In this document: piece after piece, positions 2,117 to 25,514 of the stretch
Numbering within the stretch: the stretch's first letter is position 1
Layout: every line of letters starts with the position of its first letter
Source: Deltaproteobacteria bacterium
Lineage (GTDB): Bacteria; Desulfobacterota; Syntrophorhabdia; Syntrophorhabdales; Syntrophorhabdaceae
DNA length: 33,441 bases
Direction: 5' to 3'
Assembly: GCA_022711595.1 (NCBI GenBank)
Contig: JAKLET010000034.1
Location: 1-33,441 of the forward strand
The notes under the pieces: generated by a model
Databases searched by the model: none
What the model was told of the DNA's origin: nothing
Seen by the model: the letters and a program-made list of their open reading frames with translations, nothing else
Program-made: the position numbers and the translations under genes

Positions 2117-2416
2117 ATGGCGGACAAAGAACTCCAGGAAGGCATTAAGGCATTTGAAGAGGCCCTGAGGTACGGGGCAATGGCATCGACACGGGAAGAC
2201 CTTGCCGGCGTCGAGGAGAACTATTGGATAGCCTTCAACCGGCTCAAGGGTTCGCCCGTTGAAGAGCACCGGAACATCTGCGCCCTGTGTCTCGAAGCCG
2301 TGGCGCGCATTCTCGACGGGGAGGGCCGCCCCAGCGCCGCCGATGATCTTCGCAGGCAGGCCGTTTCTCTGCGCAGGAGCGACGGGCGGGATGCCTCCCG
2401 CATCAGCAAAGGATAG
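2117..2416 (+). CDS. Small helical protein, first gene of the WD40/Clp operon
   Basis: 99 residues, not recognised. The protein is predicted to be largely alpha-helical, with alternating acidic and basic residues and a central stretch (about 45-85) that resembles one or two TPR-like helical hairpins. There is no signal peptide and no membrane segment, so it is probably cytoplasmic. The start is preceded by a good ribosome site (CGAGGAGGCAGCG). It stands about 100 nt after the bactofilin terminator, so the operon promoter should lie in 2020-2116; I see no convincing hexamers there. The stop is 24 nt before the next start. Its place at the head of a compact operon suggests a regulatory or adaptor role, which is inference. 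Confidence 0.75.
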   Translation: MADKELQEGIKAFEEALRYGAMASTREDLAGVEENYWIAFNRLKGSPVEEHRNICALCLEAVARILDGEGRPSAADDLRRQAVSLRRSDGRDASRISKG

Positions 2417-2440
2417 CCGCAGGCGACGGGCGGGAAAAGC

Positions 2441-3043
2441 ATGGAACACCATGAGCTCATAGCGTGGATACGAAGCGAGATCACATCAACCAAGGTTGTC
2501 CTATGCCAGGAAGTGGTCGGCTATAACGAGTCTTTGGAACCTAACCCCGAGATGTGTTTCTGTGAATTCACCAGTCATCCGGTGACATCCGATGGGCAGC
2601 ACATCATCGTTCAAAAACCTGTCTACGGGACCGTGGCCCGCACGGTCCTTGACGAAACACGCGCCTCAGCGGCAGCCGAGGCCCTTGCGGCCCTCATCCT
2701 TGCCGATGAACGCTACATTTACCTGGCAGAAGAACTGATGGTGAAACATCATTTGTTCACGAAATACTGGGAGCACCTGCGCCTGCACGGCAAAAGCGTG
2801 AGAACAATAAAGACCGCGCTCCGTCATCTCGGAAGGGCGCCCTCCCAGCTCTTCGTGAGAAAGATCGGCAGGATCGCGGCGAAGCTGAGACCTCCTTTTG
2901 AATTTGCCGGGAAGTTTTCCGCGGTCATCTGTTTCTATGGTACGATTATTTATCTTGTCTGGCCGAACTCAAAATTGGGGCTCTGGATCGGCAGGATCAT
3001 TAAGGGGCTCCTTCTTGAGTCGAAAAGGATAATATACGGTTAG
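2441..3043 (+). CDS. Protein of unknown function with a C-terminal hydrophobic segment
   Basis: 200 residues, not recognised. The N-terminal half is a mixed alpha/beta soluble region; residues about 75-150 are helical and very basic; residues 159-174 form a hydrophobic segment (FSAVICFYGTIIYLVW) and a second amphipathic segment ends in basic residues. A peripheral or single-pass membrane association is possible. Three Cys (22, 39, 41) are near the N terminus, without a clear metal motif. The stop lies 9 nt before the first WD40 gene, so co-transcription and possibly coupled translation are expected. It may tether the operon's machine to a membrane; that is inference. Confidence 0.72.
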   Translation: MEHHELIAWIRSEITSTKVVLCQEVVGYNESLEPNPEMCFCEFTSHPVTSDGQHIIVQKPVYGTVARTVLDETRASAAAEALAALILADERYIYLAEELMVKHHLFTKYWEHLRLHGKSVRTIKTALRHLGRAPSQLFVRKIGRIAAKLRPPFEFAGKFSAVICFYGTIIYLVWPNSKLGLWIGRIIKGLLLESKRIIYG

Positions 3044-3052
3044 AAGGAAAGT

Positions 3053-5293
3053 ATGAAACATCCCGGAACTTCTGACAAAACGGCAAATATGCGGCTGACA
3101 CCGGTGAAACGGTCGGCCGCGGCTGCGTCCCGGGATATTATCCGGGACATACTGGCGGATTTCTGCGATACGGGAAGGATCACGCACCGCGTAGGGATGC
3201 ACCTTCACCAGTATCACGGCGTACACATAACCGCCGACGGATCGAGGATGATCACGGCAAATCGTGATCACACGGCCCGCCTCTGGGACATCGCAAGCGG
3301 CCAGTGCCTCGTGGTCTTCCGGGGCCACACGGATGAACTCCGGCGCGCGGCATTCACTATCGACGGGAAGCGCGCCGTCACCTGCGCGAACGATGGGACC
3401 ATCCGCCTCTGGGACTGTACGACCGGCGAATGCCTCCTGACCCTGAACAGCCACGAGGGAGATGTCTACACCGTCGCGGTCAGCCCTGATAACAATTATA
3501 TAGTAAGCGGCGGCTCCGATGGGACCCTGCGGATATGGTCCCTCCTGTCCGGTGCCTGCGAGCACGTTGCGATACCTGCGGTCGGCAGCATCGTAAAAGT
3601 TCTTTTCACCGGGGACGCCGGCACGCTCGTCACGCTGGATTCAAGCGGCCGTGTCTGCCGATGGGGTTTTCCCGATCCCGGCAGCCCATTTTTGATCACC
3701 GAAGGGAGATTCGAATACAAGGTCCGGGACATCGCCCTCATGGGGGACGGGAAGCTCATCAGCGCGTCCTGGGCCGGCCTGCACTGCTTCGATGTCCGCA
3801 GCGGCAAAATGGAGAAGGCCTTTTCCCTGGAACCCTGCAAACCTTACAAGGTAGCGGTCCCGACAGACGGTACACGGATCGTGGCCTGCTGCTACCCGAA
3901 GACGGCCATCCTCGTCGTGGACTGCCAGAGCGGCACGATCGAGAGGCGCTTCGACGGCCACAGGGACGATGTGACCGGCATGGCCCTCTCGTCCGATGGA
4001 AAGACGCTCTGCACGGCAAGCCTCGACTGGACATGCAGGATATGGGACACCGGCACGGGGACATGCCTGCGGACCATCAGGCGCGCGTGGAACCTGGTAC
4101 GTCTTTTTCCCTCAGGTGACGGCACACGCCTTGCCGCCTTTGACGTGGACGGCACGGCGAAGACCTGGAGCCTCACCGACGGTTCGCAGCGGATTTTGTC
4201 CCGTGATGTATGGTCAGTCGCCTCTCTTGACCCCGTGAACCTCATCGCCACCGGCCATAAGGACGGGAGGATATGCCTGTGGGACGGCAAGGGGGAGCCT
4301 GCAGCGGTCCTCGAGGCCCACGAAAAACATGTGAGCTGCCTCGCTTCGCTGCGGTCAGGAACATACCTCGCGAGCGCTTCATATGACGGGACGGTGAAGC
4401 TCTGGGACATAGACAGGCGCGTTTGCACAAGGTCCTTTTCCATATCGGGAAGGATCACCACGCTCGCAGTCGACGAAAAATCGCAGCGTATCGCGACCGG
4501 CCGGATCCTCGAGAACCACATAGAAATGTACGATCTCGGCTCAGGTGACAGGCTTGCGGCCCTGAAGGGCCACACATGGCCGACCATGCGCAGTCTGGGC
4601 GCCGCCATCAGGTGCCTTTATTTTCTTCCCGATGGAAAAGGCCTGGTATCATGCGCGCACGACGGGCGGGTCATCCTGTGGGACCCCGTCACATTCGAAG
4701 CGGTGCAGGTCATTGAAGAACCCCGCTATGCCATCCTCTCAATGGCCGTGCAGAAAGACGGGCGCCATGTGGTGATCGGCACCCTCGAACAAGGGGTGCA
4801 CCGGTGGGACCTCGAAAGCGGCCGCCGGGAGTCCCTCTATCACGGTGAAGGGCTGGCGGCGCTCTCGGTCGCGCTCTCCCCTGACGAAAAAACACTTTTC
4901 GCTGCCTTCGGCGACGGGACGGCGAGGATCATCGACGTGAAGAGCGCCGCGCTGCTCTGCACGATCTGGAACATAAACGACGGCTTTTTCTGGTTCACGC
5001 CGCCTGACGAGCACGCCCCGGACGGCTGGGTATGGACCGACCGCAACGACCTCCTCCACGTTGTCGAGCAGGACAATGGCGGCGGTGTGCTCGGGGCGGT
5101 CCCCCTTGATGATGAAAGGCGCAGGGCCTATGTCCATACCCGAAACAATGCGGCCATGGTACTGGCGCGCATCAAGGGGCCCACCACGTATGCGCGCACA
5201 GCCGGTCGGTATCTGCGTGCCTTTGCAAAAAAACAGCAGGAAGCGATGGAACGTCCGCGTCTGCTTCCCCCGAAAGGAGACGGGAATGCGTAA
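3053..5293 (+). CDS. WD40-repeat beta-propeller protein, paralogue 1
   Basis: 746 residues. After a roughly 55-residue N-terminal segment there is a long run of WD40 units, shown by recurring ends such as ARLWDIASG, IRLWDCTTG, CRIWDTGTG, VKLWDIDRR and VILWDPVTF together with GH...V and D-G-T/K turns. Enough units are present (about 13-14 by eye) for two seven-bladed propellers. After the last blade, residues about 643-720 form a separate C-terminal module with the signature TPPDEHAPDGWVWTDR (649-664). The same module ends the next gene's product. There is no signal peptide, so it is cytoplasmic. Propellers of this kind bind proteins or peptides, and in this operon it could be a substrate receptor or scaffold for the Clp-type ATPase; that role is inference. 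Its stop overlaps the next start by 8 nt. Confidence 0.92.
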   Translation: MKHPGTSDKTANMRLTPVKRSAAAASRDIIRDILADFCDTGRITHRVGMHLHQYHGVHITADGSRMITANRDHTARLWDIASGQCLVVFRGHTDELRRAAFTIDGKRAVTCANDGTIRLWDCTTGECLLTLNSHEGDVYTVAVSPDNNYIVSGGSDGTLRIWSLLSGACEHVAIPAVGSIVKVLFTGDAGTLVTLDSSGRVCRWGFPDPGSPFLITEGRFEYKVRDIALMGDGKLISASWAGLHCFDVRSGKMEKAFSLEPCKPYKVAVPTDGTRIVACCYPKTAILVVDCQSGTIERRFDGHRDDVTGMALSSDGKTLCTASLDWTCRIWDTGTGTCLRTIRRAWNLVRLFPSGDGTRLAAFDVDGTAKTWSLTDGSQRILSRDVWSVASLDPVNLIATGHKDGRICLWDGKGEPAAVLEAHEKHVSCLASLRSGTYLASASYDGTVKLWDIDRRVCTRSFSISGRITTLAVDEKSQRIATGRILENHIEMYDLGSGDRLAALKGHTWPTMRSLGAAIRCLYFLPDGKGLVSCAHDGRVILWDPVTFEAVQVIEEPRYAILSMAVQKDGRHVVIGTLEQGVHRWDLESGRRESLYHGEGLAALSVALSPDEKTLFAAFGDGTARIIDVKSAALLCTIWNINDGFFWFTPPDEHAPDGWVWTDRNDLLHVVEQDNGGGVLGAVPLDDERRRAYVHTRNNAAMVLARIKGPTTYARTAGRYLRAFAKKQQEAMERPRLLPPKGDGNA

Positions 5294-7745
5294 GGAAAGC
5301 AAGGCGCCGCCTGCCGATCGAACGGTATCAGCCACAGGGGTGAGGCCCGCGAACATCTCAACTCAGGCGGTTGCCGCTATTCTGGAAAACTCCTCTCCGC
5401 TTAGCCGGTTGACCCACGACGTGGGGTTCCACAAAGAAAAGATCACCAGGATTTCACTGGCCTTTGGCGGAACACACCTCGTTACGGGAAGCACCGACGG
5501 CATGGTGCGCCTGTGGGATATATCCTCCGGGACATGCCTGCGAGCGTTCCAGGACCGGGACTCCACCCTTTCAGGGATCCTCACGGCCCCCGGGAGGGCC
5601 CGCATGATCACAGCGGCGCCGTTCGGAGGGAAAAAGATCTGGGACCTCGAAACCGGGGACTGCCTGGCCAGCCTGCGCGATCAGCCGGGTACGCCTGTCT
5701 GCTGCGACGATGTCCATTTCTTCTGCAAGCAGAATTGGGATGTAACGCCGCTCTTTGATAAAAACCGTCCCCGTTCGAAGAGGTCCGAGGCCCTGGTCTA
5801 CGAGATCGATTCGGGAAAAAGGGTCCGCGCCTTCGAGATCGAGGGCGTCCACATCGATTCTCTCGCGGTGAGCCCCGACAGTAAAAAGATCGCCGTGACC
5901 AGTGACGATCATTACCTGAGGATATGGGACCTCGGATCGGGAGAGCTCCTCCATCAGCTCTCTCCCGGGCGCTATTTCCGGGAAATCATAGGCATCACCC
6001 CCGACAGCCGCTATATCGTCCTGAGTTCGGCGCTCACCATCGATGTCCGGGACATGGAAACTTCAGCAACGGTCTTTGCCATGGCGATACATCCGAACAA
6101 CTATCAGCCCCGGTACTTTTTGCAAGGCTCTCTCCTCTTCGAGAAGAGGGTGGATTTTGCCTCTCCCGGATTTTTGTCAACGGTCCGCGCCATAGACATC
6201 GAAAGAGGCGCGATATCGCATATTGCCAGATTCGAGGGAGACATCGAACTCAAGTCCATCACTCAAGGGGAAGGATATTGCCTGGGGTCCCGCCATGGCA
6301 TGATCGATATATGGGATATGAGAAACCGCGAGATAATAGCTTCTGAAGTGCTTGATCCGTATGACTTCGATTGGAATGCCAATCTCAATGCGGCCACGCC
6401 GGGAAAAAGTCAGATAGCCATTTCCCGCGAGGAATCAGTGGTGCGGCTCATCGATCCCCCATCAGGGCAATTTACCACATTCCCCGCCAGGGAACCTGTC
6501 AGGGACGTCCTGATCACCCCCGACGGGAAAGGGCTGCTGACCATGGGCCCATCCGCGGTGAAACACTGGGACCTCGCAGGCGGCCGACACCTCAGGGAAT
6601 TCAGCATTCCGAAGACGCAGCTCAGGGGCGGCCTGCCCCAGGGCGCGCCGCAGATGGCGATCACACCCGATGGAAGCCGCATCGTGCTGCCGGGGAAAGA
6701 CGGGGCCATCCTCTTCGATCTCTCCACGGGCGGAAAGATACGGGAATTTCCCTTCGAATTGCACGCCGCGACAGAAAGATCAGATAATCAAGGCGCTTTC
6801 GCCCTCCATGTGACCCCGGATGGGAAGAGGCTCATGGTCGTATCGGGGCCGGGCGGTTTCCTGGGGTCGTACGATATCCTCACGGGAGCCCCCGCCGCAG
6901 GTTTCCCCTTGAACGACGTAGGCCGGTTCCACGCCTTTTGCGCGGGCGGCGATCTCTTCGCCACATCAGCCGGCAGCATCCTGTCGCTCCGGGACGGCCA
7001 GACGGGAAGGCCCCTTCGGCGATACGACCAGGGCGATAGCATTCAGAGCATCGCCTTCCTCCGGTCGGGAACGCAGATGATCACCACGAGCGTGTTCAGA
7101 CTGAGCTTCCGGGACCAGGCAAGCGGGGAGTTGACGCATGAACCCGACATAAACACCGGATTGGGCTATAACAGGTTCGGCAGGTGGCTCTGTCCCGTGC
7201 CCGGCGACAGGCAATTGCTCGTTCACCACGACAATTGCGTCGCCTTATGGGATATGGACAGGCACAGGTTCCTCTGGCAGGACAGTTCCTGGCGGAAGAA
7301 CAGGGTGAGGAAGGCCGCGGTCTTCCCTGACGGCAAACGTTTTGTCACAGTGGACGCAACGGGAATGGTCGAAGTGAGGGGTATCGAAAAAGGCGGGGTC
7401 CTTGCGACCCTCCATGTGCTGCCCGGCGGGTTCATCTGGGAGACCCCGCCCGACACCCATGCCCCCTCGGGATGGCTGTGGACGGACAGGGAAGACCTGG
7501 TCAGCGTCGTTGCCCGGTCAAGGCGGGGCCGCAGCACGAAAATATTCAGGAAGGGGGACAATGAGCACGCCTCCTATCTGAAAATCTATAATAACCGGAA
7601 AATGGTCATGGCAAGGATCGAGTCGACAGGAGCATACAGGCGCCAGGCCGGGCTCTACGCGGCCGCCATGGACAAGGCACGGATCGCCGGCGCATCCGGC
7701 CGGTCCCCTGCCGCTCTCCCCGCCGGAAGAAAAGGAGACAGGTAA
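5286..7745 (+). CDS. WD40-repeat beta-propeller protein, paralogue 2
   Basis: 819 residues from ATG at 5286. The frame is open upstream to 5061 but that part lies inside the previous gene; the chosen ATG has AAAGGAGA upstream and gives the compact 8-nt overlap. WD40 units are clear at the N-terminal side (VRLWDISSG near residue 80, LRIWDLGSG) and become more degenerate toward the middle, again suggesting two propellers. The C-terminal module begins near residue 716 with TPPDTHAPSGWLWTDR (720-735), followed by an N-N-x-x-MVMARI stretch, matching its upstream paralogue. The two genes look like an old tandem duplication with diverged blades, consistent with two different binding specificities. 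The stop and the next ATG share one base (TAATG). Confidence 0.92.
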   Translation: MRKESKAPPADRTVSATGVRPANISTQAVAAILENSSPLSRLTHDVGFHKEKITRISLAFGGTHLVTGSTDGMVRLWDISSGTCLRAFQDRDSTLSGILTAPGRARMITAAPFGGKKIWDLETGDCLASLRDQPGTPVCCDDVHFFCKQNWDVTPLFDKNRPRSKRSEALVYEIDSGKRVRAFEIEGVHIDSLAVSPDSKKIAVTSDDHYLRIWDLGSGELLHQLSPGRYFREIIGITPDSRYIVLSSALTIDVRDMETSATVFAMAIHPNNYQPRYFLQGSLLFEKRVDFASPGFLSTVRAIDIERGAISHIARFEGDIELKSITQGEGYCLGSRHGMIDIWDMRNREIIASEVLDPYDFDWNANLNAATPGKSQIAISREESVVRLIDPPSGQFTTFPAREPVRDVLITPDGKGLLTMGPSAVKHWDLAGGRHLREFSIPKTQLRGGLPQGAPQMAITPDGSRIVLPGKDGAILFDLSTGGKIREFPFELHAATERSDNQGAFALHVTPDGKRLMVVSGPGGFLGSYDILTGAPAAGFPLNDVGRFHAFCAGGDLFATSAGSILSLRDGQTGRPLRRYDQGDSIQSIAFLRSGTQMITTSVFRLSFRDQASGELTHEPDINTGLGYNRFGRWLCPVPGDRQLLVHHDNCVALWDMDRHRFLWQDSSWRKNRVRKAAVFPDGKRFVTVDATGMVEVRGIEKGGVLATLHVLPGGFIWETPPDTHAPSGWLWTDREDLVSVVARSRRGRSTKIFRKGDNEHASYLKIYNNRKMVMARIESTGAYRRQAGLYAAAMDKARIAGASGRSPAALPAGRKGDR

Positions 7746-9349
7746 TGAAGATCTACACGAAGCTTGGCGACGACCTCGATATGATGATACGCTCCTTCGA
7801 GACAAACCCGGCTGTCTCGGACCGGCAGAAAGAAACCTGGCGGCAGGAAGGCAAAAAAAGGGCGATCACCCATGGCATGTTCGGTTACGACCACGAAAAG
7901 GCCCTCGCCTTCGAAGACGGGACAAAGGTGGGCTCCATGAAACAAAACAGCGCCCGCCGTTTCTGGGACTACGCCGGGGGGCACGTCTTCCCGCCGGAAG
8001 AGGACGTGGCCCGCTTCTGTCTCTTTATGCATCTCGACATCTACAGAACCCTGGCGCTTTTGCTCAAGGCCCGGTGGGAGCGGTTCTTTGCCCACGACGT
8101 GAACGAATGGAGGGCGGCCGACGGGACAAATCTGACGGATATCCTTCTCGACGCGGACGAACATGCCCTGAGGGAGGCGCTTGTCCGGTTCCAACCCCGG
8201 GGCGATGATCTTTACAACCTCCTGACGGAGCTTGCCTGCCGTCATGCAGCATTGCCGGAGAGGTCCGGCGGCGCTGACATACCATTTCTCGAAGGACACA
8301 CGCCTTCCACCTTCGCGGCCCTCGTAGATGAAATGCTCATGGGGCGATATCACTTTCTTTCGATGGAAAGTGCGGAGCTCACCCATTTCACGGCCCAGGC
8401 ACGCAAAGAATTTTTCCTTCTCGTCGAAGGCACCCGGGAGCAGCAGCGGATCTATCCCCTCGAGAAGGCGAGATGGGTTTCGCTGCGGCAGGAGCTGGAA
8501 GACCTTTACCTCCTTATCGAGAACCAGCGCCTCAGGAACGCCCATACGCGCCGCGAGTGGCTCGCCGTCTTCGGCGGGGAAGAGATCGGTCTCAGAGAGG
8601 CCGCCCTTGACTACGAACGCAGCGATATCCGCTACAACCTGAAGGCCGCCAATCCCGGGTGGACCATCGAGGACATCGAACGATGCCTCGGGGAGGAAGA
8701 GATAAAGAGACAGCTCGAGCTGTCACGGCTCAGGACCGATGCGGCGCTGGCCCCCCACCTTGTGAGGCAGCCCGGAGATCAAAGCACGGCTGGAAAGTCA
8801 GTTGAACCCGACCGGTACCTGAAAGAGTGCAAAACGGTGCTCCGGCAGATACACAGGCTCCTGCACCCCGACAAGCTCATGCACCATCCCTCCTACAAGG
8901 ACCTCACGGACGGCCAGAAGGAGCGCCTCCAGGAAATGCTGCTGTCGGCCCTCGAGGTCCGCCCCGAGGAACTGGGCTATCCAGAGGGATACCTGCTCCA
9001 CGATATGCGGTCCCTCGACGGCCTGAAAAACGCACTGTCACGGATCGAGGCCATTCTCGGCAATCCTGGGATCGATACGGATGAACGTCTCTCGATCAAA
9101 GGCGAGACCCTGCCCGAAAAACTCAAATGGCTGCAAATGGAGAACAGGGTGCTCGAAGACGAGATCCTCAGCGGGAAAGCGGAAATGCAGGCGCTTTTCG
9201 AGGACGATGATGCGGTGAAAAAACGGGCGGTCCTCAACGATCCGTCATGTCACGAAAAGGTGAAGGACGATTTCAGGGCCCGTACCGCGCAGCTCAGGCT
9301 CGACGCCGAACGCCTTCAGGGGGCTTTCGATGCGCTCTTCGAACAGTAA
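7745..9349 (+). CDS. Large protein with a J-domain-like HPDK motif and C-terminal coiled coil
   Basis: 534 residues. No known full-length family is recognised. Residues about 357-405 look like a J domain or a relic of one: a basic helix (ECKTVLRQIHRLL), the HPDK tetrapeptide at 374-377, a loop, then a second amphipathic helix rich in Gln/Glu/Leu. J domains stimulate Hsp70 ATPase through His-Pro-Asp. Unlike DnaJ, the motif is internal and no Gly/Phe or zinc region follows. Residues about 450-534 are heptad-like and probably coiled coil. The N-terminal 340 residues are helical with several Trp and no recognisable motif. It is translationally coupled to the upstream WD40 gene by a one-base overlap and lies 12 nt before the Clp ATPase, so it may be a co-chaperone or assembly factor. 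Confidence 0.8.
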   Translation: MKIYTKLGDDLDMMIRSFETNPAVSDRQKETWRQEGKKRAITHGMFGYDHEKALAFEDGTKVGSMKQNSARRFWDYAGGHVFPPEEDVARFCLFMHLDIYRTLALLLKARWERFFAHDVNEWRAADGTNLTDILLDADEHALREALVRFQPRGDDLYNLLTELACRHAALPERSGGADIPFLEGHTPSTFAALVDEMLMGRYHFLSMESAELTHFTAQARKEFFLLVEGTREQQRIYPLEKARWVSLRQELEDLYLLIENQRLRNAHTRREWLAVFGGEEIGLREAALDYERSDIRYNLKAANPGWTIEDIERCLGEEEIKRQLELSRLRTDAALAPHLVRQPGDQSTAGKSVEPDRYLKECKTVLRQIHRLLHPDKLMHHPSYKDLTDGQKERLQEMLLSALEVRPEELGYPEGYLLHDMRSLDGLKNALSRIEAILGNPGIDTDERLSIKGETLPEKLKWLQMENRVLEDEILSGKAEMQALFEDDDAVKKRAVLNDPSCHEKVKDDFRARTAQLRLDAERLQGAFDALFEQ

Positions 9350-9361
9350 AGGGAGGTCCCT

Positions 9362-11605
9362 ATGACCCTGAACCGTCTTTGTGAACTTGTGAGCATATTT
9401 TACCCGGACGGAGAGAGGACCCTTCCCCGGATCCTTTTTGTGTGGGCCATGAACGACGAGGACGGAGGCCTTACGCTTCTGCTCTCACAGGCAAAGACAA
9501 GGATGAGCGTCTTCTCCCTCGCCGTTGAATCCTTTATCGACGATCGCCTGGATGAAGATCGGCGCCTCCTCACCCGGGCCATCATCGAGACGCGTAAAAA
9601 ACCCGTGACGGGGTACGATCTCCTCTCCATTTTATGCGACAGCCCTGATCACCGCATACACCGCACCCTTCGGTCGGCCGGCATCGACATGACAACGCTC
9701 GCTATATGCGCAAAGCATGCCGGCTATGCCGCGCGCCGCCGGCCGCTGGAGGAGAATGTAGATCCCCCGCGGAACGACGCCGCGCTCCTGCGATACGGCA
9801 GGGACCTTACCTCGCTTGCCGAAAAGGGGGATTTCGATGACCTCTCAGACCGGCCGGACGAGATCGACCGGCTCTTTGAGGTGCTGTTGAGAAAACGCAA
9901 ACGCAACGCCATGATCACCGGGGCGGCCGGCATCGGCAAGACCGCCCTCGTTGAGCTCCTGTCGCGGCGCATCGCCCAGAACCGCGCGCCGTCAAGACTC
10001 TCGGGAACCAGGGTGTACGAGATCAGCATGGGGAGTCTCCTCGCGGGGACAACACTCCGCGGCATGTTCGAAGAGAGGATGTCGAAGGTGATAGAGACGC
10101 TCGTGTCATGTCAGCCGGCCATCCTTTTCATCGATGAGGCCCACCTCATCTGGGGCGCCGGCAGGGCGGAAGGCGCGCCCATGGATGCGGCAAACATCCT
10201 CAAGCCGGTCCTCGGGGGATCGAAGGTATCGGTCATCGGCGCCACGACAACCGGTGAATATCATCACTATATCGCCCGCGACCCTGCGCTCGCCCGCCGT
10301 TTCCAGGAAATCATGGTCGAGGAGCCCGGCAAGGCAACGACTATCGCGATCCTGCAGCGCCACGCGCAGACCCTGGAGGCACATCACGGCATAATGATAG
10401 GGGCGGACATCCCCTCCGAGGCCTGGAGGGCAACCGAGCTCCATTTGTCCAACCGCACCCAGCCCGACAAGAGCGTGGACCTCCTTGACAGCACGGCGGT
10501 CCTCGTCGAGAGGGAAGGCCGCGGCGAGATGGGAACAGACGACCTCTATCGCGTCCTCGCGCGCCAGACCGGACGGATGATGAGCGCCCTCGGGGAGGGC
10601 GCCGCCAGGGACTTGAGGGGCCTCGAAGCGTCCCTGAACAAGCGGGTGATAGGCCAGGAAGAAGCGGTGAAAAGGATCGTTTCCACGCTCGTCTCGCGAA
10701 GATACGGTGAAGCGGCGCCGGGACGGCCGCTGGGGACCTTCCTCTTCTCAGGCGCCACCGGGGTGGGCAAGACAGAGCTTGCCCGGACCCTTGCCCGGGA
10801 GTATTTCGGGAGCGCAAGGGACTTCCTCCATATCGATCTCGCGGAATACAGCGGGCACGACGGGGTGCACAAGCTCATCGGGATGCCCTATGGTTCCTCC
10901 GTGGGAACCGCGGAAGGGATCCTTACCCGGTGGCTCCGGGAGAGGTCCAGCGGCGTGGTCCTCTTCGATGAGATCGAGAAGGCCCACCCGGATATCCACA
11001 GGCTTCTCATGGGTCTGCTCGATGAGGGGAGGATAACCTCCGGTATGGGGGAGCGCTTCGATGTGCGCCGCTGTGTCGCCATACTCACCACAAACGTCCT
11101 GGGCCACCAGGACATGCATCGGGTGAAACTGGGGTTTTCCCCGCTTGAAGACCACGACGATCCCTTCGCGCTCATGTCGAAGTACTTCCCGGAAGAGTTC
11201 CTGGGAAGGCTCGATGAGATCATCATTTTCAGGACGCCCACGGTGCAGGAGTTCAGGAAGATCCTCAGTCAGAAGCTCACAGAGGCGCTGGGGCGTCTTC
11301 AGGACAAAGGGGTCTTCCTTGTCTACGAGCCGGAACGCCTCCTTGACCACCTCCTCGCCGGGGATGAAAAACCGTGGGGAGGGGCAAGAGACATGGCGAG
11401 GCTCGTCGAACGAAGACTGATCCAGCCCATTGCCCGCCGGCTGCTCGATCTCGATGCGGGGGAATGGGTTTGCATCGAGCTCACAGAATCCTTTTACCGC
11501 TTCGGGGACATCGACCCTGTGCCGTTGACCAGGCATCCCCGGCCGGCCGGGCCGCCGCCGGGTTTTTCCGGCAGGCCGAATGCGGCCCCCGAAGCCCGAC
11601 AATGA
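9362..11605 (+). CDS. ClpA/ClpC-like double-AAA+ protein unfoldase
   Basis: 747 residues. The N terminus (about 30-115) resembles a diverged Clp N domain. AAA module 1 has Walker A GAAGIGKT (187-194), Walker B LFIDEA (255-260) and an ARRF arginine-finger region (311-314). Module 2 has Walker A GATGVGKT (464-471), Walker B VLFDEIEKAHP (533-543), sensor 1 TTN (576-578), Arg616 in EEFLGRLDEI and sensor 2 in GGAR (673-676). There is no long middle domain between modules, unlike ClpB. The tripeptide LGF at 590-592 occupies the position of the ClpP-docking loop of ClpC/ClpA, about 22 residues before FLGRLDE. A ribosome site GGGAGGT precedes the ATG. Both ATPase sites look intact, so it should be an active hexameric unfoldase; partnership with ClpP and the WD40 proteins is inferred. 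Confidence 0.93.
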   Translation: MTLNRLCELVSIFYPDGERTLPRILFVWAMNDEDGGLTLLLSQAKTRMSVFSLAVESFIDDRLDEDRRLLTRAIIETRKKPVTGYDLLSILCDSPDHRIHRTLRSAGIDMTTLAICAKHAGYAARRRPLEENVDPPRNDAALLRYGRDLTSLAEKGDFDDLSDRPDEIDRLFEVLLRKRKRNAMITGAAGIGKTALVELLSRRIAQNRAPSRLSGTRVYEISMGSLLAGTTLRGMFEERMSKVIETLVSCQPAILFIDEAHLIWGAGRAEGAPMDAANILKPVLGGSKVSVIGATTTGEYHHYIARDPALARRFQEIMVEEPGKATTIAILQRHAQTLEAHHGIMIGADIPSEAWRATELHLSNRTQPDKSVDLLDSTAVLVEREGRGEMGTDDLYRVLARQTGRMMSALGEGAARDLRGLEASLNKRVIGQEEAVKRIVSTLVSRRYGEAAPGRPLGTFLFSGATGVGKTELARTLAREYFGSARDFLHIDLAEYSGHDGVHKLIGMPYGSSVGTAEGILTRWLRERSSGVVLFDEIEKAHPDIHRLLMGLLDEGRITSGMGERFDVRRCVAILTTNVLGHQDMHRVKLGFSPLEDHDDPFALMSKYFPEEFLGRLDEIIIFRTPTVQEFRKILSQKLTEALGRLQDKGVFLVYEPERLLDHLLAGDEKPWGGARDMARLVERRLIQPIARRLLDLDAGEWVCIELTESFYRFGDIDPVPLTRHPRPAGPPPGFSGRPNAAPEARQ

Positions 11606-11620
11606 TCAGGAGGTATTGAA

Positions 11621-11791
11621 ATGGAAGAACAGGACAACAAGAAAAAAATGGACGAACATAACTGCAGCGAACATGTCCGTTATGACGGCGGACAGAAGAT
11701 CAACCGGGACGGCGTCAGGATATGGATCGAAACATACTATTGCAGCGTCTGCGGAAAACGTCTCGATATAAAGGAAGAGATACTGGACTGA
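11621..11791 (+). CDS. Small zinc-ribbon-like protein (56 residues)
   Basis: ATG at 11621 is preceded by an excellent ribosome site (CAGGAGG) and lies 15 nt after the Clp ATPase stop, so it is the last gene of the operon. The 56-residue product starts with a very polar Lys/Glu/Asp segment, then has Cys15 and His18, and a C-terminal CxxC at Cys41 and Cys44 in YYCSVCGKRL. The pattern C-x2-H ... C-x2-C fits a compact zinc ribbon or knuckle. Such small proteins often serve as adaptors or nucleic-acid-binding factors; no specific function is assigned. Confidence 0.75.
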   Translation: MEEQDNKKKMDEHNCSEHVRYDGGQKINRDGVRIWIETYYCSVCGKRLDIKEEILD

Positions 11792-13940: not shown

Positions 13941-14387
13941 ATGAAAAAACTTTTTGTCCTCTGTCTCATGACGGCACTTCTTTTGCCATGCCTTGCCATG
14001 GGGAAAGAACTGCCCATAGGAAAAACAAAGACAATCAAGGGTGATGTCGTCGTTGTGCGCGGCGGCAAAGAGCTTTCCGTTAATATCGGCGACAGGGTTT
14101 ACCGGAACGATACGATACGAACGGGATCGGACAGTACGGTGGGGATCATTTTCGAGGACAACACGATCCTGTCGCTGGGACCGAACAGCGCGATAGTGAT
14201 CGAAGAATACATATTTGCCCCCGAAAAGGGCGTGCTGTCCATGGTTGCCCGCATTTTACGGGGCACCGCCTCCTACCTGTCCGGCATCATAGGCAAGCAG
14301 TCGCCGGAAGCGGTGAAGTTCCACACTCCCGACGCAACGATCGGCATCCGCGGAACACAGTTCCTTGTCAGGGCGGAAAATCAGTAA
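13941..14387 (+). CDS. FecR-domain secreted protein
   Basis: 148 residues. Residues 1-20 form a signal peptide (Lys-Lys then a hydrophobic core ending near Leu-Ala-Met-Gly). The rest is a compact FecR domain: GDVVVVRGGKELSVNIGD, then ND-T-I-R-T, G-I-I-FEDNT, LGPNS, and a final TPDATIGIRGTQF motif that is diagnostic of the family. FecR domains in such stand-alone proteins are periplasmic or surface modules, often found beside CHASE2 receptors and OmpA proteins. A strong AAGGAGGG ribosome site precedes the ATG. It is the first gene of a run continuing into the OmpA lipoprotein and the CHASE2 kinase, with which it probably shares a signalling role; it lacks the inner-membrane anchor of classical anti-sigma FecR. 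Confidence 0.9.
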   Translation: MKKLFVLCLMTALLLPCLAMGKELPIGKTKTIKGDVVVVRGGKELSVNIGDRVYRNDTIRTGSDSTVGIIFEDNTILSLGPNSAIVIEEYIFAPEKGVLSMVARILRGTASYLSGIIGKQSPEAVKFHTPDATIGIRGTQFLVRAENQ

Positions 14388-14458
14388 CCCGCGGTCTTTT
14401 GCCGTGGTCCGCTGATGGCCGTTACTTTATCGATCTGTCACAGAATGGGGGGGGAGAC

Positions 14459-15067
14459 ATGAAGAACATTATCACCGCGCTGATCTGTCTGGGTGTTGTC
14501 CTGTCCGTTGCGTCCTGCGGCTGCGGGATAAGGAGCATGGTGGTGCTGATCCCCGACCCGGACGGCCGTGTCGGGCAGGTGGTAGTTGAAAACGACAGCG
14601 GGCAAAAGGTCTTGAACGAGGCCAACCAGTCGGTGGAATTGACGGACCGCAAGACACCGCCGGGCAAAGTGACAAAGCTCAGCAATGAAGAGATCAGCTC
14701 CATATTTTCCGACGCGCTGGCCGCACGGCCGATGCCGCCTGCACGATTTATCCTTTATTTCCTGCACGACTCAACCGAACTGACCGTCGAATCCAGGGCC
14801 GTTGTCCCAAAGGTCATTCAAACTATCAGGGAGAGGAACTCCACTGATGTGGTCATCTCGGGACACACCGATACGGTGGGCACGAAGGAGCACAACTACA
14901 AGCTGGGCCTCGACCGGGCAAACGCGCTCTACGATATCCTTATCACCAGCGGCGCGGTCCCTGCGAGTGTCACCGTCACATCTCACGGGGAAGGAAACCC
15001 CCTTGTTAAAACAGCCGATAATGTCACGGAACCAAGGAACCGGAGGACTGAGATAGCGATAAAATAG
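14459..15067 (+). CDS. OmpA-family outer-membrane lipoprotein
   Basis: 202 residues from the ATG at 14459. The frame opens earlier at 14399, but this ATG is preceded by GGGGGGAGAC and starts a proper lipoprotein signal peptide with lipobox V-A-S-C (Cys20). Residues about 100-202 are an OmpA C-terminal peptidoglycan-binding domain: ILYFLHDSTELT, VVISGHTDTVGT, N-x-x-L-x-x-x-R-A and a terminal NRRTEIAI. In the family the Asp and Arg of the GHTD and RR segments grip diaminopimelate. It should anchor an outer-membrane assembly to the cell wall. It lies between the FecR protein and the CHASE2 kinase, 71 nt and 28 nt apart, and so belongs to the same transcription unit. Confidence 0.92.
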   Translation: MKNIITALICLGVVLSVASCGCGIRSMVVLIPDPDGRVGQVVVENDSGQKVLNEANQSVELTDRKTPPGKVTKLSNEEISSIFSDALAARPMPPARFILYFLHDSTELTVESRAVVPKVIQTIRERNSTDVVISGHTDTVGTKEHNYKLGLDRANALYDILITSGAVPASVTVTSHGEGNPLVKTADNVTEPRNRRTEIAIK

Positions 15068-15095
15068 CTTCCTCCGCCACCCGGCAAGGTCATTC

Positions 15096-18017
15096 ATGAA
15101 ACCAGGGTCGAACAGACTTCCAGTTAACGATCACAGCAATGATGCCTCAACCGTCAGGCAGGGAAGCCGCCGCATCCTGGTCTGGGGGCTCCTGTCCACC
15201 CTGTTCTTTGCCGCCCTCTTCGTGTTCAAACCGAACCTGTTCCAGCCCCTTGACCTTATAAATTATGACTTTCTCCTTAAAAGATTCCCCAACAACCACA
15301 TCGGCGGCAGGGTGGTGATCGTCGAACTCGATGAAAAAACCCTGAATCGTTACGGCCAGTGGCCCTGGCCCCGCTACCGGGTGGCAGGACTGCTCGACAA
15401 GATCGCCGCCATGGAGCCGGCTGCCGCAGGCCTCGACATGGTTTTTGCCGAACCCGACAGGACCTCCGCGGGGCAGCTGCTGAAAGACCTCAGGACCGTT
15501 TACAAACGCAGTATACCCCTTGACCGTCTTCCCGCCGAGTTGAGCGACAACGATCGCATCCTTTCGAAGGCGCTCGCCCGGGGCCCCTTTGTCCTTGGCA
15601 TCCAGTTCCATTTCAACGGGCACGCGGGCAATCCGGAACAATGTCTTCTGCATCCCGTCAGGGTTTCCCTCCTGAGGGATACGGGAAAAAGGAGAGAGGG
15701 CCCCGATATTCCGGGAAGCCCCGGTGCCCTGTGCAACCTGGCGATGCTGGCGCGGAGCGTCAGCGCTTCAGGATTTTTAAACTTCAGCCCGGACCACGAC
15801 GGCATGCTGAGACGCCTTCCTCTGCTCATCCAATACAACGGAGAGACCTATGCCAGCCTGGCCCTAGCCACTGTCCTGAAATTCAGGGGAGCAGGCGGTA
15901 TCCTTCTTAAAAAAGACGGGAGCACCCTGCGGTCGCTCAATTTCAACGGGACCTCCGTTCCCGTTGACACTCACGGCCAGCTGCTGATCAAATTCCGGGG
16001 GCCGAAGAGAAGCCTTGACTATGTGTCTGCCGCGGACATCATGGACGGGAGCGTCCCGCCGGAGAGACTGCGGGGGCGGATCGTTTTCGTCGGCGCCTCT
16101 GCGGCGGGCCTTGCCGAATCGCTTGCAACACCTCTGGGCCCTACATACCCTGGCGTAGAGGTGCATGCGACCGTTGCCGACAACCTCCTGGCGGGCGATT
16201 TCATTTCCGTACCGGGCTGGTCAGGCGGGCTTACCCTGCTGCTTATCCTTGTTCCGGGCGCATTGCTGGGCCTGCTGCTCGGTTTTCGAAACGCCATTCC
16301 CTACTGCTTCGCTGCCGTGCTGCTCTTTATCGCCGGGTTATGGCTGATGACGCAACAGGTGTTCTTTCGCTCGGGACTGTTCGTGGGGACGGCATTCCCG
16401 ATCGCGTCCGTTGTCTGCGCTTACCTGCTGCTTGCCTTCATGAAACACCGTTCGGACCAGAAACTGGCGGAAGAAAAGACCCGCCAGTCCGAGGAAAAGT
16501 TCATGAACATCTTCATGTCCGCGCCCTACTGCATTGCCATCACCCGGATGAAGGACGGTCTCATACTCGACGCGAACCGCGGCTTTGAAGAAACCCTGGG
16601 ATGGAAGCGCCAGGAAGCCATCGGCATACGGTCGACAGACCCGCACTTCAATTTCTGGGTCGACCCCGGGGAACGTGAGTTCATGGTGGAAGAGCTGAAA
16701 GCCGGCAGGGAGATTATGCAGCGGGAATTCCAATTCAGGGGATCCGACGGTGTCCCGCGCCCGGGCATTTACTCCGCAAGGCCCACCCGGATCACGGGCG
16801 AGGCCTGCCTTATCTTTATCCTGCAGGATATCACGAGCCGGAAACGATTGGAGGAAGATCGCCAAAAACTGGAGCACCAATTGCTTCAGACCCGGAAAAT
16901 GGACGCCATCGGGCAGTTGGCAGGAGGCATTGCCCATGACTTCAACAACATGCTCAGCGTGATCATCGGCAATACCGAACTGGCGCTCAGCAAAGTTTCC
17001 CCCTCTGAACGCCTCTATGAGGCACTTCAGGATATCCTGAATGCGGGAAGGCGGTCCGCGGACCTGACCCGCCAACTGCTGGCCTTTGCCCGCAAGCAGA
17101 CCGTCAGCCCAAAGGTGTTGGACCTGAACGACACCGTGGCGGGCATTCTCAAGATGCTTCAGAGGCTTATCGGCGAGAACATCAATCTGGTATGGAAACC
17201 CGGGCAGGCGCTCTGGCATGTCAGGATAGACCCGTCCCAGGTCGACCAGCTCCTTGCAAATCTGACAGTGAACGCCCGTGACGCCATGAACGATGCAGGG
17301 GAGGTCATTATCAGAACCTCCAATATTGTCTGTGATGAAGCCTATTTATCAGCTCACCCGGAATCCGCTCCCGGGGAATACGTATCGCTGGAGGTGAGCG
17401 ACGAGGGCTGCGGAATAGAGAAAGAGACAATGGCGAACATCTTCGAACCCTTCTTCACCACCAAGAAAGAAGGCGTGGGGACAGGCCTCGGCCTGGCTAC
17501 CGTATACGGGATCGTCAAACAGAACGGAGGGTTCATCAATGTAGACAGCGAGCCGGGGCGGGGCACGACCTTCCGGATCTGCCTGCCCCGATTCAGTGCC
17601 GGGCTTAAGGAAACCTCAGACCACGATTCGTCGGATAGGGTCGAGGGAGGCACCGAGACGGTCCTGATCGTGGAGGATGAGGGGTCGGTTCTGAGCCTCG
17701 GCAAAGAAATGCTTGAAACGCTGGGCTACAAGGTGCTGGCGGTCGACGGGGCGGACCATGCCCTCCGATTGGCCGGGGAATATGGCGGGAACATCGACCT
17801 GCTGCTCACCGATGTGGTGATGCCGGGCATGAACGGGAGGGAACTTGCCCGAAGGATCGTTGCCATTAAACCGGGCCTGAAATGCCTGTACATGTCCGGG
17901 TACGCGGCAGACCTGATCACGCGCCAGGGTTTTCTGGAGGAAGGCATTCAATTCATCAGCAAACCGTTCTCTCTGGCTGATCTGGCCGACAAGATCCGGA
18001 GAACGCTGAAATCCTGA
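15096..18017 (+). CDS. CHASE2-PAS hybrid histidine kinase with receiver domain
   Basis: 973 residues. Order: one membrane helix (about 27-48), a periplasmic CHASE2 sensor domain (about 50-345, with VIVELDEKTLNRYGQWPWPR and FVGASAAGL landmarks), two or three more membrane helices (about 370-445), a PAS domain (about 465-590), and a HisKA domain with His614 in GGIAHDFNNML. The HATPase_c domain has N-A-R-D-A, DEGCGI and the FFTTKKEGVGTGLGL loop, and the C-terminal receiver domain has the phospho-acceptor Asp906 in LLLTDVVMPG. All catalytic motifs appear intact. CHASE2 commonly senses extracytoplasmic signals next to FecR genes. No separate response regulator with an output domain lies nearby, so the phosphorelay partner is elsewhere. 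Confidence 0.93.
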   Translation: MKPGSNRLPVNDHSNDASTVRQGSRRILVWGLLSTLFFAALFVFKPNLFQPLDLINYDFLLKRFPNNHIGGRVVIVELDEKTLNRYGQWPWPRYRVAGLLDKIAAMEPAAAGLDMVFAEPDRTSAGQLLKDLRTVYKRSIPLDRLPAELSDNDRILSKALARGPFVLGIQFHFNGHAGNPEQCLLHPVRVSLLRDTGKRREGPDIPGSPGALCNLAMLARSVSASGFLNFSPDHDGMLRRLPLLIQYNGETYASLALATVLKFRGAGGILLKKDGSTLRSLNFNGTSVPVDTHGQLLIKFRGPKRSLDYVSAADIMDGSVPPERLRGRIVFVGASAAGLAESLATPLGPTYPGVEVHATVADNLLAGDFISVPGWSGGLTLLLILVPGALLGLLLGFRNAIPYCFAAVLLFIAGLWLMTQQVFFRSGLFVGTAFPIASVVCAYLLLAFMKHRSDQKLAEEKTRQSEEKFMNIFMSAPYCIAITRMKDGLILDANRGFEETLGWKRQEAIGIRSTDPHFNFWVDPGEREFMVEELKAGREIMQREFQFRGSDGVPRPGIYSARPTRITGEACLIFILQDITSRKRLEEDRQKLEHQLLQTRKMDAIGQLAGGIAHDFNNMLSVIIGNTELALSKVSPSERLYEALQDILNAGRRSADLTRQLLAFARKQTVSPKVLDLNDTVAGILKMLQRLIGENINLVWKPGQALWHVRIDPSQVDQLLANLTVNARDAMNDAGEVIIRTSNIVCDEAYLSAHPESAPGEYVSLEVSDEGCGIEKETMANIFEPFFTTKKEGVGTGLGLATVYGIVKQNGGFINVDSEPGRGTTFRICLPRFSAGLKETSDHDSSDRVEGGTETVLIVEDEGSVLSLGKEMLETLGYKVLAVDGADHALRLAGEYGGNIDLLLTDVVMPGMNGRELARRIVAIKPGLKCLYMSGYAADLITRQGFLEEGIQFISKPFSLADLADKIRRTLKS

Positions 18018-22878: not shown

Positions 22879-23172
22879 ATGGAAAACCTCGAGGAAATAA
22901 AAAAAATATTAAAAGAACACAAAGGAACGCTCAGAGAGAGGTTCCACGTGGACAATATCGCGATCTTTGGTTCTTATGCCAGGAAGGAAGCATCGCGTGA
23001 AAGCGATATCGATATACTTGTGGAATTTTCAAAACCCGTGGGATTTGTAACTTTCATAAGGCTTGAGAACTATCTCACCGAACTTATCGGCAAGAAGGTT
23101 GACCTCGTTACTAAAAAGGCGCTTAAACCCAACATCGGCAAGATCATCCTGCAAGAACTTGTTCATGTATAA
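22879..23172 (+). CDS. mntA: MNT-domain nucleotidyltransferase antitoxin
   Basis: 97 residues from the ATG at 22879. The minimal nucleotidyltransferase motif is complete: GSYAR (31-35), then SDIDIL with Asp43 and Asp45, and a third acidic residue at Asp75. The length and the downstream HEPN partner fit MntA of the HEPN/MNT toxin-antitoxin systems, where MntA neutralises HepT by adding AMP to a tyrosine near its active site. The frame is open from a GTG at 22849; I chose 22879 because AAGGGG lies 6 nt upstream and the family starts near the first helix. The stop overlaps the hepT start by 8 nt, so translation is coupled. Confidence 0.9.
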   Translation: MENLEEIKKILKEHKGTLRERFHVDNIAIFGSYARKEASRESDIDILVEFSKPVGFVTFIRLENYLTELIGKKVDLVTKKALKPNIGKIILQELVHV

Positions 23173-23512
23173 TAAGAGACAGCCTCTCGATTACCTCAAT
23201 GATATCCTGGAATCAGTCAACGACATACGCGAGTTCACCAAAGATATGCGCTATGAGGATTTCATCGGTGACCGCAAAACGCTGAAGGCAGTGATCCGTT
23301 GTTTCGAAGTCATAGCTGAGGCAACAAAGGCTTTGCCGTCCGATATCAAAGAGAACCACAAGAAAATACCATGGGCCGAGATCGTCGGTATGCGAAACAA
23401 GCTCATCCATGAATATTTCGGAATCGATACGGAGATCCTGTGGCAATCCATACAGGAAGACCTTGAACCCCTTGAATCCACGGTAAAGACAATATTCTTA
23501 GATTTGAAATAA
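23165..23512 (+). CDS. hepT: HEPN-domain RNase toxin
   Basis: 115 residues from the ATG at 23165. It is a small all-helical HEPN protein (DUF86 family) with the catalytic RX4HXY motif complete: Arg77, His82 and Tyr84 in RNKLIHEY. In characterised pairs HepT cleaves RNA, and its tyrosine in this motif is AMPylated by MntA. The gene overlaps mntA by 8 nt and follows it directly, the usual order of the module. All key residues are intact, so both members are probably functional. It borders the AT-rich island. Confidence 0.92.
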   Translation: MYNKRQPLDYLNDILESVNDIREFTKDMRYEDFIGDRKTLKAVIRCFEVIAEATKALPSDIKENHKKIPWAEIVGMRNKLIHEYFGIDTEILWQSIQEDLEPLESTVKTIFLDLK

Positions 23513-23545
23513 CTGGTTTCTTATTTTTCTTTAGTTTTTCCCGTT

Positions 23546-23795
23546 CAAGCGGTTCAAGCATTCAAGCCGTTTTTCTGTTTCACGCCCGCTCTACAAAGAC
23601 CGTGAAGCGTAAGGCGTGAATCGTAAAACGTTCAAAAAGAATGAAGCCAAAAGGCTGTTTCACGCCCGCTCGTCATGCCCGCGGCTTGACTCGCTGGAGG
23701 CAACAGAGCATGGGGAGAAGGCCATACCTTGCATCCTGATCTTCGAGAATACCAAGATCAGGATGCACTCCGATCGCCTTCGGCGAAGAAATGCT
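23546..23795 (+). repeat. Dispersed hairpin repeat, copy A
   Basis: This copy begins with AAGCGGTTCAAGCATTCAAG and runs through CTGTTTCACGCCCGCTC, which is duplicated here around a roughly 75-base insert. It continues through CTGGAGGCA and a 13-bp perfect hairpin (23731-23743 with 23754-23766, loop CGAGAATACC), ending with a small hairpin GATCGCCTTCGGCGAA. Its counterpart is inverted at 31579-31745. The hairpin stems differ by compensatory changes between copies. Confidence 0.8.
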
Positions 23796-23848
23796 TCCTG
23801 GGAAATTAAATGGTTTTAAGCGGACTTGATCATCTTGCCGGCAAATTG

Positions 23849-23883
23849 ATCGATATTTAATTTTTGAAGAGCGTCCCGCAAGC
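23849..23883 (+). repeat. 35-bp direct repeat, left copy
   Basis: Identical over 35 bases to 27524-27558; begins ATCGATATTTAATTTTTGAA and ends GAGCGTCCCGCAAGC. Degenerate relatives lie near 25806, 25857 and 27433 (shared theme TTTAAGAACGTCCC). Confidence 0.8.
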
Positions 23884-24100
23884 GCCCCCTTTCCACATCG
23901 AAAGCTTCAATAAAATGCTTGACAGTAAAATATTAAAGATGGATTATTAGAATAGAAAGTAACTAAATATCATATTAAGAGTTCTATTTAGGCCTAAGAA
24001 CGAGAACAAGATACTTCTGAGATGTCGGATATTTGTAAATGAGGCGCAATAGCTAATAGCATCCTAATTTAGCTTCTTCGGCCATGCTTTGCAAATAACC

Positions 24101-25000: not shown

Positions 25001-25496
25001 AAACAAAATATTCCCATTCAGATTTCACTGCACTCGGTGTGGCGCATGTTGCACACATATGTTAATGGGTGTTCCATTATTCCACACAGATATACAGGAT
25101 ATCTCCGGTATCCTTAAGACAAATAAGGGTGATTTCATTAATCGATATTGCGACCTGATCGTTCATAAGATCCCTAACAACCAAAATACGTTAAGAGTCC
25201 ACGCTTTCTATCTAAAACTGTTTGATAGTAGATGCATTTTCTACGAAAACAATGGGTGTGCAGTTAATGATGTTAAACCATACCTTTGCAAAACGGCTCC
25301 TTTTATTTCTTTGCTATTTCAAGATAGCACGGTGATCGATAATTTTAAGAAGCGATGTAAAGGTTTCGGTCATGGACCATACTATAACAAAAAAACGATC
25401 AAGTTCATGCTCAAACAAGAAGCGAAACTGGAAAAAGCAGAATGGGAATTATTCAATAATGGATTTTACGATAACCTGATGAAGAAAGCTTTATAA
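24984..25496 (+). CDS. YkgJ-type cysteine-cluster protein
   Basis: 170 residues, starting at TTG 24984. The diagnostic cluster is C-x2-C-x2-CC at Cys16, Cys19, Cys22 and Cys23, with later Cys84, Cys92 and Cys102 (the last in YLCKTAPF). This is the YkgJ/Fe-S or zinc cysteine-cluster family (formerly UPF0153), thought to bind a metal cluster; the reaction is unknown. No ATG precedes the cluster, so TTG is the only credible start; it overlaps the upstream stop by 17 nt, which suggests coupled translation. The usual follow-on C-x-I-Y-x-x-R-P-x-x-C region is recognisable but diverged (C-A-V-N-D-V-K-P-Y-L-C). Confidence 0.85.
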   Translation: MLKKLENKIFPFRFHCTRCGACCTHMLMGVPLFHTDIQDISGILKTNKGDFINRYCDLIVHKIPNNQNTLRVHAFYLKLFDSRCIFYENNGCAVNDVKPYLCKTAPFISLLFQDSTVIDNFKKRCKGFGHGPYYNKKTIKFMLKQEAKLEKAEWELFNNGFYDNLMKKAL

Positions 25497-25514
25497 ATAT
25501 CAAAGGAGGAAAAA

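What the first reader, a model, noticed from the sequence alone, without database searches (positions are those of the whole stretch)
2117..11791. Compact operon joining WD40 propellers, a J-like protein and a Clp-type unfoldase
Seven genes are packed with 9-24 nt gaps or 1-8 nt overlaps: two small unknown proteins, two large WD40 proteins, a HPDK-containing protein, a ClpC-like double AAA+ ATPase and a zinc-ribbon-like protein. I do not recognise this combination as a described system. Established knowledge: Clp ATPases unfold proteins delivered by adaptors, and WD40 propellers act as substrate receptors in eukaryotic ubiquitin ligases. Inference: the propellers choose targets and the ATPase unfolds them. 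The absence of an obvious toxin effector argues for protein quality control or regulated proteolysis rather than classic defence.
Basis: partly seen in the sequence, partly recalled or inferred. Interest (0 to 1): 0.85.

Follow-up and report, generated by a model that had tools for sequence, protein, structure and literature searches.

The report
WD40, J-like and Clp chaperone operon
Some Syntrophorhabdus bacteria carry a seven-gene unit, kept or lost as a whole, that pairs two WD40 propeller proteins and a J-like helper protein with a Clp-type protein-unfolding motor that carries the docking signal for the ClpP protease, so it may be an undescribed machine that picks out particular proteins for remodelling or destruction.

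Summary
In detail: seven co-directional genes (2117-11791), gaps from -8 to +24 nt. The set is kept or lost as a block. In Syntrophorhabdus, 7 of 12 genomes have the J-like gene, the Clp-specific N domain and both WD40 genes, and 5 have none; flanking genes change. Outside the genus the Clp is absent, but the J-like gene and a WD40 gene with the same C-terminal tail occur in exactly the same three other families among 395 phylum genomes, overlapping in two and at matching contig ends in the third. J-like + WD40 is thus the core, and the Clp a genus-specific addition.

The ATPase is not an ordinary ClpC. It is ClpA-like (no M domain), with intact catalytic motifs in both rings and an invariant ClpP-docking tripeptide (LGF), but lacks the canonical pore tyrosines (D1 Y to L, D2 GYVG to GSSV/GSAF). 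The genome has one ClpP.

Best reading: propellers and J-like protein select targets and hand them to the Clp ring, probably with ClpP. Target selection and J activity are inferred, and the altered pore loops leave non-threading remodelling or defence open. I found no description of this gene set; a general DnaJ-WD40 gene association is published for cyanobacteria.

The parts
2117..2416 (+). A99: small helical protein, faint TPR-like match; conserved family seen only in this operon so far
   Evidence: TPR_12 E=0.038, below cutoff; 66-69% identity to genus homologues; its position in the operon varies
2441..3043 (+). B200: protein with a beta hairpin, helices and a C-terminal hydrophobic helix (about residues 154-173), probably a membrane anchor; duplicated in one homologous locus (L018)
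   Evidence: peak hydropathy at 155; model of moderate confidence, mean pLDDT 66; no homologue in 286 other phylum genomes; no fold match
3053..5293 (+). WD1: 746-aa WD40 protein with C-terminal tail GFxWxTPP...GWxWTDRxDL...NN
   Evidence: tail shared with WD40 proteins beside J-like genes in other families
5286..7745 (+). WD2: 819-aa divergent WD40 paralogue of WD1 with the same tail; less constrained than J534 and Clp
   Evidence: dN/dS 0.28-0.38 against 0.11-0.19 for J534 and Clp
7745..9349 (+). J534: mostly helical and coiled-coil protein with a J-like helix-HPD-helix segment (about residues 355-410)
   Evidence: HPD invariant in 8 of 8, down to 26% identity; DUF4460 E=0.0019 in the G170 homologue; auxilin J domain, E=0.77; low-confidence model
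9362..11605 (+). Clp: 747-aa two-ring AAA+ ATPase with divergent Clp_N-like N domain, no M domain, LGF ClpP-docking tripeptide (residues about 590-592), altered pore-1 loops
11621..11791 (+). Zr56: 56-aa zinc-ribbon-like protein, invariant C15-x2-H18 and C41-x2-C44
   Evidence: 80-85% identity; no Pfam family

Best explanation
This is one multi-protein machine for target-selected protein remodelling, most likely regulated proteolysis. The two WD40 propellers and the J-like protein form the recognition core: the propellers bind target proteins or complexes and the J-like protein probably recruits DnaK or acts as a scaffold. They hand the target to a dedicated ClpA-like ring that docks on the cell's ClpP through its LGF loop. 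B200 probably ties part of the complex to the membrane. Shown: the genes are real, are inherited as a block, and the J-like + tailed-WD40 pair co-occurs beyond the genus; the ATPase keeps both catalytic sites and a ClpP-docking tripeptide. Inferred: target binding by the propellers, Hsp70 recruitment by the J-like segment, physical complex formation, ClpP partnership and actual threading.
For: All-or-none inheritance of three markers in 12 genus genomes. Same seven genes with changed flanks and internal order. J-like family and WD40 tail in the same 4 of 395 phylum genomes, about 1e-9 by chance if genomes were independent; overlapping genes in G170 and G337. LGF aligned with the ClpP-docking IGL of ClpA and the docking loop of ClpC, invariant 6 of 6 and absent from the genome's ClpB and ClpV-like protein. 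One ClpP in the genome; a search with this ATPase found no other two-ring Clp than those two. Walker A/B, sensor and arginine-finger motifs intact in both rings. Propellers are 2-3 times less constrained than J534 and Clp. Precedents for J-proteins sending chosen enzymes to destruction: J20-Hsp70-ClpC in Arabidopsis plastids (PMC4729485) and TCAIM, which binds folded E1o and promotes its loss (PMC13311838); TCAIM carries DUF4460 (my own knowledge), the family weakly matched by one homologue here.
Against: Pore-1 tyrosines of both rings are replaced; these are described as key for unfolding and translocation (PMC9663308), although ClpE uses isoleucine in its first ring (PMC13125188). The J-like segment rests on HPD and weak matches only. 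The Clp is absent from the three distant J+WD40 loci, so the pair works without it there. No target is known, the structural model of J534 is poor, and no complex was modelled.
Confidence: 0.45

Rival explanations
1. A remodelling or disassembly ATPase that does not thread its substrate: WD40 and J-like proteins form a scaffold and the Clp ring pries a complex apart, in the spirit of ClpV acting on the type VI sheath; the LGF loop would be a remnant.
For: Both pore-1 loops lack the canonical tyrosine: D1 GTTLRG, D2 PYGSSV/PYGSAF/PYSSSR, in all 6 homologues.
Against: LGF is invariant in 6 of 6 although its neighbours vary; a non-aromatic D1 loop works in ClpE; an invariant tyrosine two residues earlier in the D2 loop (PY[GS]) might take over the role; no contractile or other large assembly is encoded nearby.
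Confidence: 0.2
2. An anti-invader (conflict) system: propellers sense a phage or plasmid product and the Clp-J machine destroys it or releases B200 as a membrane effector.
For: Patchy all-or-none distribution in the genus, different chromosomal sites, less constrained propellers, a predicted membrane protein, and a TIR-NTPase-WD40 gene divergently beside the J+WD40 pair in G170.
Against: No effector domain and no PADLOC match for the unknown genes; no J-family relatives in phage, plasmid or viral contig collections; neighbours here are housekeeping and signalling genes. dN/dS stays well below 1.
Confidence: 0.2
3. A DnaK-DnaJ-Hsp100 disaggregation module (ClpB-like) specialised for stress.
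For: J-like gene next to an Hsp100 gene; ClpB is the top NCBIfam match of the ATPase.
Against: No middle domain, the part of ClpB that DnaK binds (my own knowledge); a ClpP-docking loop is present, which the genome's ClpB lacks; the genome already has a ClpB.
Confidence: 0.1
4. Fortuitous gene cluster: the genes are co-transcribed but do not act together.
For: Internal order differs between genomes; the Clp is missing from distant J+WD40 loci.
Against: Block inheritance in the genus and matching phyletic pattern of J-like family and WD40 tail across families.
Confidence: 0.05

Closest known systems
ClpA/ClpC/ClpE ATPases of the ClpP protease
   Same: Two AAA+ rings with intact catalytic motifs, Clp_N-like N domain, [LIV]-G-[FL] ClpP-docking loop; ClpA likewise has no M domain
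   Different: Pore-1 tyrosines replaced in both rings, very divergent N domain, fixed operon partners (WD40, J-like)
J20-Hsp70-ClpC pathway (Arabidopsis plastids, PMC4729485)
   Same: A J-protein marks a particular enzyme for a ClpP-linked Hsp100
   Different: No WD40 receptors known there; J20 is a recognised J-protein; the parts are not in one operon
TCAIM (DNAJC, DUF4460), mitochondrial E1o control (PMC13311838)
   Same: HPD-type protein outside classical DnaJ; DUF4460 is the best Pfam hit of the family; TCAIM lowers the level of a folded enzyme
   Different: Similarity is faint (E=0.0019 in one homologue) and not shown for the window protein
Beta-propeller and FtsH vWA-MoxR conflict systems (PMC7159879)
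   Same: AAA+ chaperone with beta-propeller partners and lineage-specific helical proteins; no conventional effector in the propeller type
   Different: AAA+ is of the MoxR clade with a vWA partner; here a Clp with a J-like partner and no vWA protein
DnaJ-WD40 gene neighbourhoods in cyanobacteria (PMC5587647)
   Same: DnaJ-domain genes reported as frequent neighbours of WD40 genes
   Different: No Clp gene mentioned; relation to this J-like family or WD40 tail not tested
WD40-receptor ubiquitin ligases of eukaryotes
   Same: Propellers as proposed target receptors
   Different: No ubiquitin-like tag or ligase here; analogy only

Membership tests
ClpP-partner Hsp100 (ClpA/ClpC type) | Two AAA+ modules with Walker A, Walker B and arginine fingers | tested here: met
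   GxxGxGKT, ILFIDEAH and VxLFDEIEKAH, ARRFQ and GRLDE invariant in 6 homologues
ClpP-partner Hsp100 (ClpA/ClpC type) | ClpP-docking tripeptide in the second ring | tested here: met
   LGF invariant 6 of 6, aligned to ClpA IGL in 5ofo and to the ClpC loop in 6em8
ClpP-partner Hsp100 (ClpA/ClpC type) | Aromatic pore-1 loop residues (KYR, GYVG) | tested here: not met
   D1 TLR; D2 GSSV, GSAF or SSSR
ClpP-partner Hsp100 (ClpA/ClpC type) | Clp_N domain | tested here: inconclusive
   Clp_N in 3 of 6 homologues, best E=0.059; none for the window protein
ClpP-partner Hsp100 (ClpA/ClpC type) | Binds and feeds ClpP | not testable with these tools
   Needs biochemistry; one ClpP gene is present
ClpC / ClpB | Middle (M) coiled-coil domain between the rings | tested here: not met
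   Linker lacks the insert present in the genome's own ClpB
J-domain proteins | HPD between helices II and III | tested here: met
   HPD invariant 8 of 8; a low-confidence model gives helices 355-373 and 389-403 around it
J-domain proteins | Match to a DnaJ-type profile | tested here: not met
   No DnaJ (PF00226) match in any of 8 members; DUF4460 E=0.0019 in one; auxilin E=0.77
J-domain proteins | Stimulates an Hsp70 ATPase | not testable with these tools
   Needs biochemistry
vWA-MoxR ternary conflict systems | MoxR ATPase plus vWA protein | tested here: not met
   ATPase is Hsp100-type and no vWA domain was found in the operon
Known anti-phage systems (PADLOC-DB 2.0.0) | Component profiles matched over most of their length | tested here: not met
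   Only generic AAA+ and WD40 cross-matches

The most novel reading that the evidence does not exclude
A bacterial receptor-guided degradation machine without any ubiquitin-like tag: diversifying WD40 receptors and a J-like adaptor deliver specific native proteins to a dedicated ClpA-like ATPase on ClpP, built on a J-like + WD40 core that occurs in several families with other partners.
Probability: 0.3. Interest if true: 0.85.

Novelty: new variant of a known kind. Interest (0 to 1): 0.62.

Why it matters
Bacterial Clp proteases are usually steered by small single adaptors. A Clp-type ATPase with its own operon of WD40 and J-like partners, inherited as a block, would be a receptor-based way to choose proteins for destruction or remodelling, comparable in logic to WD40-receptor ubiquitin ligases. 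The J-like + tailed-WD40 pair, found together in four families here, gives a defined two-protein core that can be tested biochemically, and the altered pore loops pose a clear question about how such a ring acts on proteins.

Tried and rejected
Genome-contig scan with the single J534 protein found nothing; with the alignment only genus members. Phage, plasmid and viral contig searches for the J family were empty. The weak G293 hit (E=9.5e-4, only the C-terminal coiled coil) was dropped; one search did not recover it. The structure of J534 was too poor to interpret (mean pLDDT 46); that of B200 gave no fold match. The idea that the ATPase is an ordinary ClpB, ClpC or ClpV was rejected by the motif alignment. 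One pair of control values (modA/modC, G006-G010) is invalid, apparently read in the wrong frame for G010, and was not used. WD40 genes alone were not taken as evidence because they are common; the specific tail was used instead.
Full report
WHAT IS THERE. Upstream (196 nt) is a bactofilin gene and an M48 peptidase gene; downstream (241 nt, opposite strand) is a PpnN-type nucleosidase gene. No tRNA or Rfam element lies in the window. The window is contig 28 of a 3.5 Mb genome; GTDB contigs that carry the operon in the same genus are titled Syntrophorhabdus sp. or Deltaproteobacteria/Syntrophobacterales MAGs, so I call the genus Syntrophorhabdus. This naming is an inference from those titles.

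CONSERVATION IN THE GENUS. A J534 search of relatives hit 6 of 11 same-genus genomes and none of 48 other relatives. Loci from these genomes carry A99, B200, WD1, WD2, J534, Clp and Zr56 close together; one genome's locus is cut by a contig end after the start of Clp and another's is split over two contigs. The order of A99 and B200 differs: in several genomes A99, with or without B200, sits between WD2 and J534, and one genome has two B200 copies. The genus was searched separately with the Clp N domain and the WD40 tail: the same 7 of 12 genomes are positive for all three markers, with two tails each, and the same 5 are negative for all. Two of the five negatives are only 66% and 74% complete; three are 92-96% complete. 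Flanks show at least two chromosomal settings: the window and G011 share downstream genes but not upstream ones, while G002, G005, G006 and G010 share an upstream transporter cluster that is not beside the operon in the window. The unit is therefore sharply bounded.

BEYOND THE GENUS. A profile of J534 against 395 genomes of the phylum found good homologues in G170, G337 and G318, three other families (confirmed with an enlarged profile). They are 26-30% identical and keep the HPD motif. In G170 and G337 the next gene, overlapping by 26 and 20 nt, encodes a WD40 protein that ends with the same tail as WD1 and WD2. A profile of that tail alone, run over 395 genomes, hit only G000, G170, G318 and G337, the same four. 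In G318 the two genes lie at the ends of two contigs in an arrangement that fits J followed by WD40 across a contig break. If genomes were independent, the match of four with four in 395 has probability 1e-9; shared ancestry and the use of the distant WD40 tails in building the tail profile make the true figure less extreme, but the genomes belong to four families, and the G318 WD40 was not part of either profile. None of the three has the Clp nearby, and the Clp N domain was found in no other of 395 genomes, nor B200 in 286 others. G170 instead has a sigma-54-type AAA+ protein upstream and a TPR protein downstream, with a divergent TIR-NTPase-WD40 gene; G337 has a histidine kinase and a sigma-54 response regulator upstream.

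THE ATPASE. It is a two-ring Hsp100 with no M domain, hence ClpA-like in plan although ClpB is the best single family score. Both rings keep Walker A, Walker B, sensor and arginine-finger residues in six homologues. In the second ring the sequence VKLGF is invariant while its surroundings vary; LGF aligns with IGL of the ClpA loop built into the 5ofo chimera and with the ClpC loop of 6em8. ClpE carries VGF in this place and mutating it makes ClpE deficient in ClpP interaction (PMC13125188). The genome's ClpB and ClpV-like protein lack it, and one ClpP gene is present. The pore-1 loops are unusual: D1 KYR is TLR and D2 GYVG is GSSV, GSAF or SSSR. The tyrosines are described as key for substrate binding, unfolding and translocation (PMC9663308); in ClpE the D1 position is isoleucine. 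An invariant tyrosine two residues before the usual D2 position might substitute. The N domain is a divergent Clp_N at best.

THE OTHER PROTEINS. J534 is mostly helical and coiled-coil. Its J-like segment rests on HPD, the helix-HPD-helix pattern in a low-confidence model, DUF4460 in one homologue (E=0.0019) and a non-significant auxilin match. I treat it as J-like, not as a proven J domain. WD1 and WD2 are 26% identical paralogues with a common tail. In most genome pairs their dN/dS is 0.24-0.38 against 0.11-0.19 for J534 and Clp: constrained, but less so, as expected of recognition parts and equally of relaxed constraint. B200 has a C-terminal hydrophobic helix. Zr56 has invariant CxxH and CxxC pairs.

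HOW IT MOST LIKELY WORKS. I take the J-like + WD40 pair as the recognition core and the Clp as the genus-specific motor. Propellers bind targets; the J-like protein couples them to DnaK or directly to the Clp N domain; the Clp ring acts on the target and passes it to ClpP. J-protein to Hsp100 hand-over with destruction is known from J20-ClpC (PMC4729485), and a DNAJC protein that lowers one folded enzyme from TCAIM (PMC13311838). Shown here are gene content, co-inheritance and motifs. Binding, hand-over, proteolysis and targets are inferred.

NOVELTY. Literature searches found no description of this set. DnaJ-domain genes as frequent neighbours of WD40 genes in cyanobacteria are published (PMC5587647), and AAA+ chaperones with propeller partners are known as vWA-MoxR systems (PMC7159879), which this is not. 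I rate it a new variant of a known kind (an Hsp100 machine with dedicated adaptors). The library holds only open-licence papers and no other phylum was searched, so absence of a description or of wider occurrence is not shown.

Noticed in passing
window 13941-18017: FecR-like, OmpA-family and CHASE2 histidine-kinase/receiver genes in a row downstream of the operon, also downstream of the operon in G011 (L014); PMC5587647 reports a WD40 cluster with a CHASE2 gene in one Nostoc strain.
   Followed up: partly
L026:13001-16060: TIR - NPHP3-type NTPase - WD40 protein gene divergent from the sigma-54 activator/J-like/WD40 genes in G170; looks like an NLR-type immune protein.
   Followed up: partly
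L026:11018-12772: Sigma-54-interaction AAA+ protein with no detected DNA-binding domain directly upstream of the J-like gene in G170.
   Followed up: no
G000:C21:2801-4852 (L041): An 896-aa Hsp100 gene that resembles ClpV (type VI secretion); whether a full secretion cluster is present was not checked.
   Followed up: no
window 23000-31500: GC content falls to 35-44% against 48-65% in most of the rest of the window; holds unknown ORFs and a radical-SAM gene, possibly a foreign insertion.
   Followed up: no
L018:2725-3312 and 8552-9148: Two divergent B200 copies in one operon (G006), one before WD1 and one after A99.
   Followed up: partly
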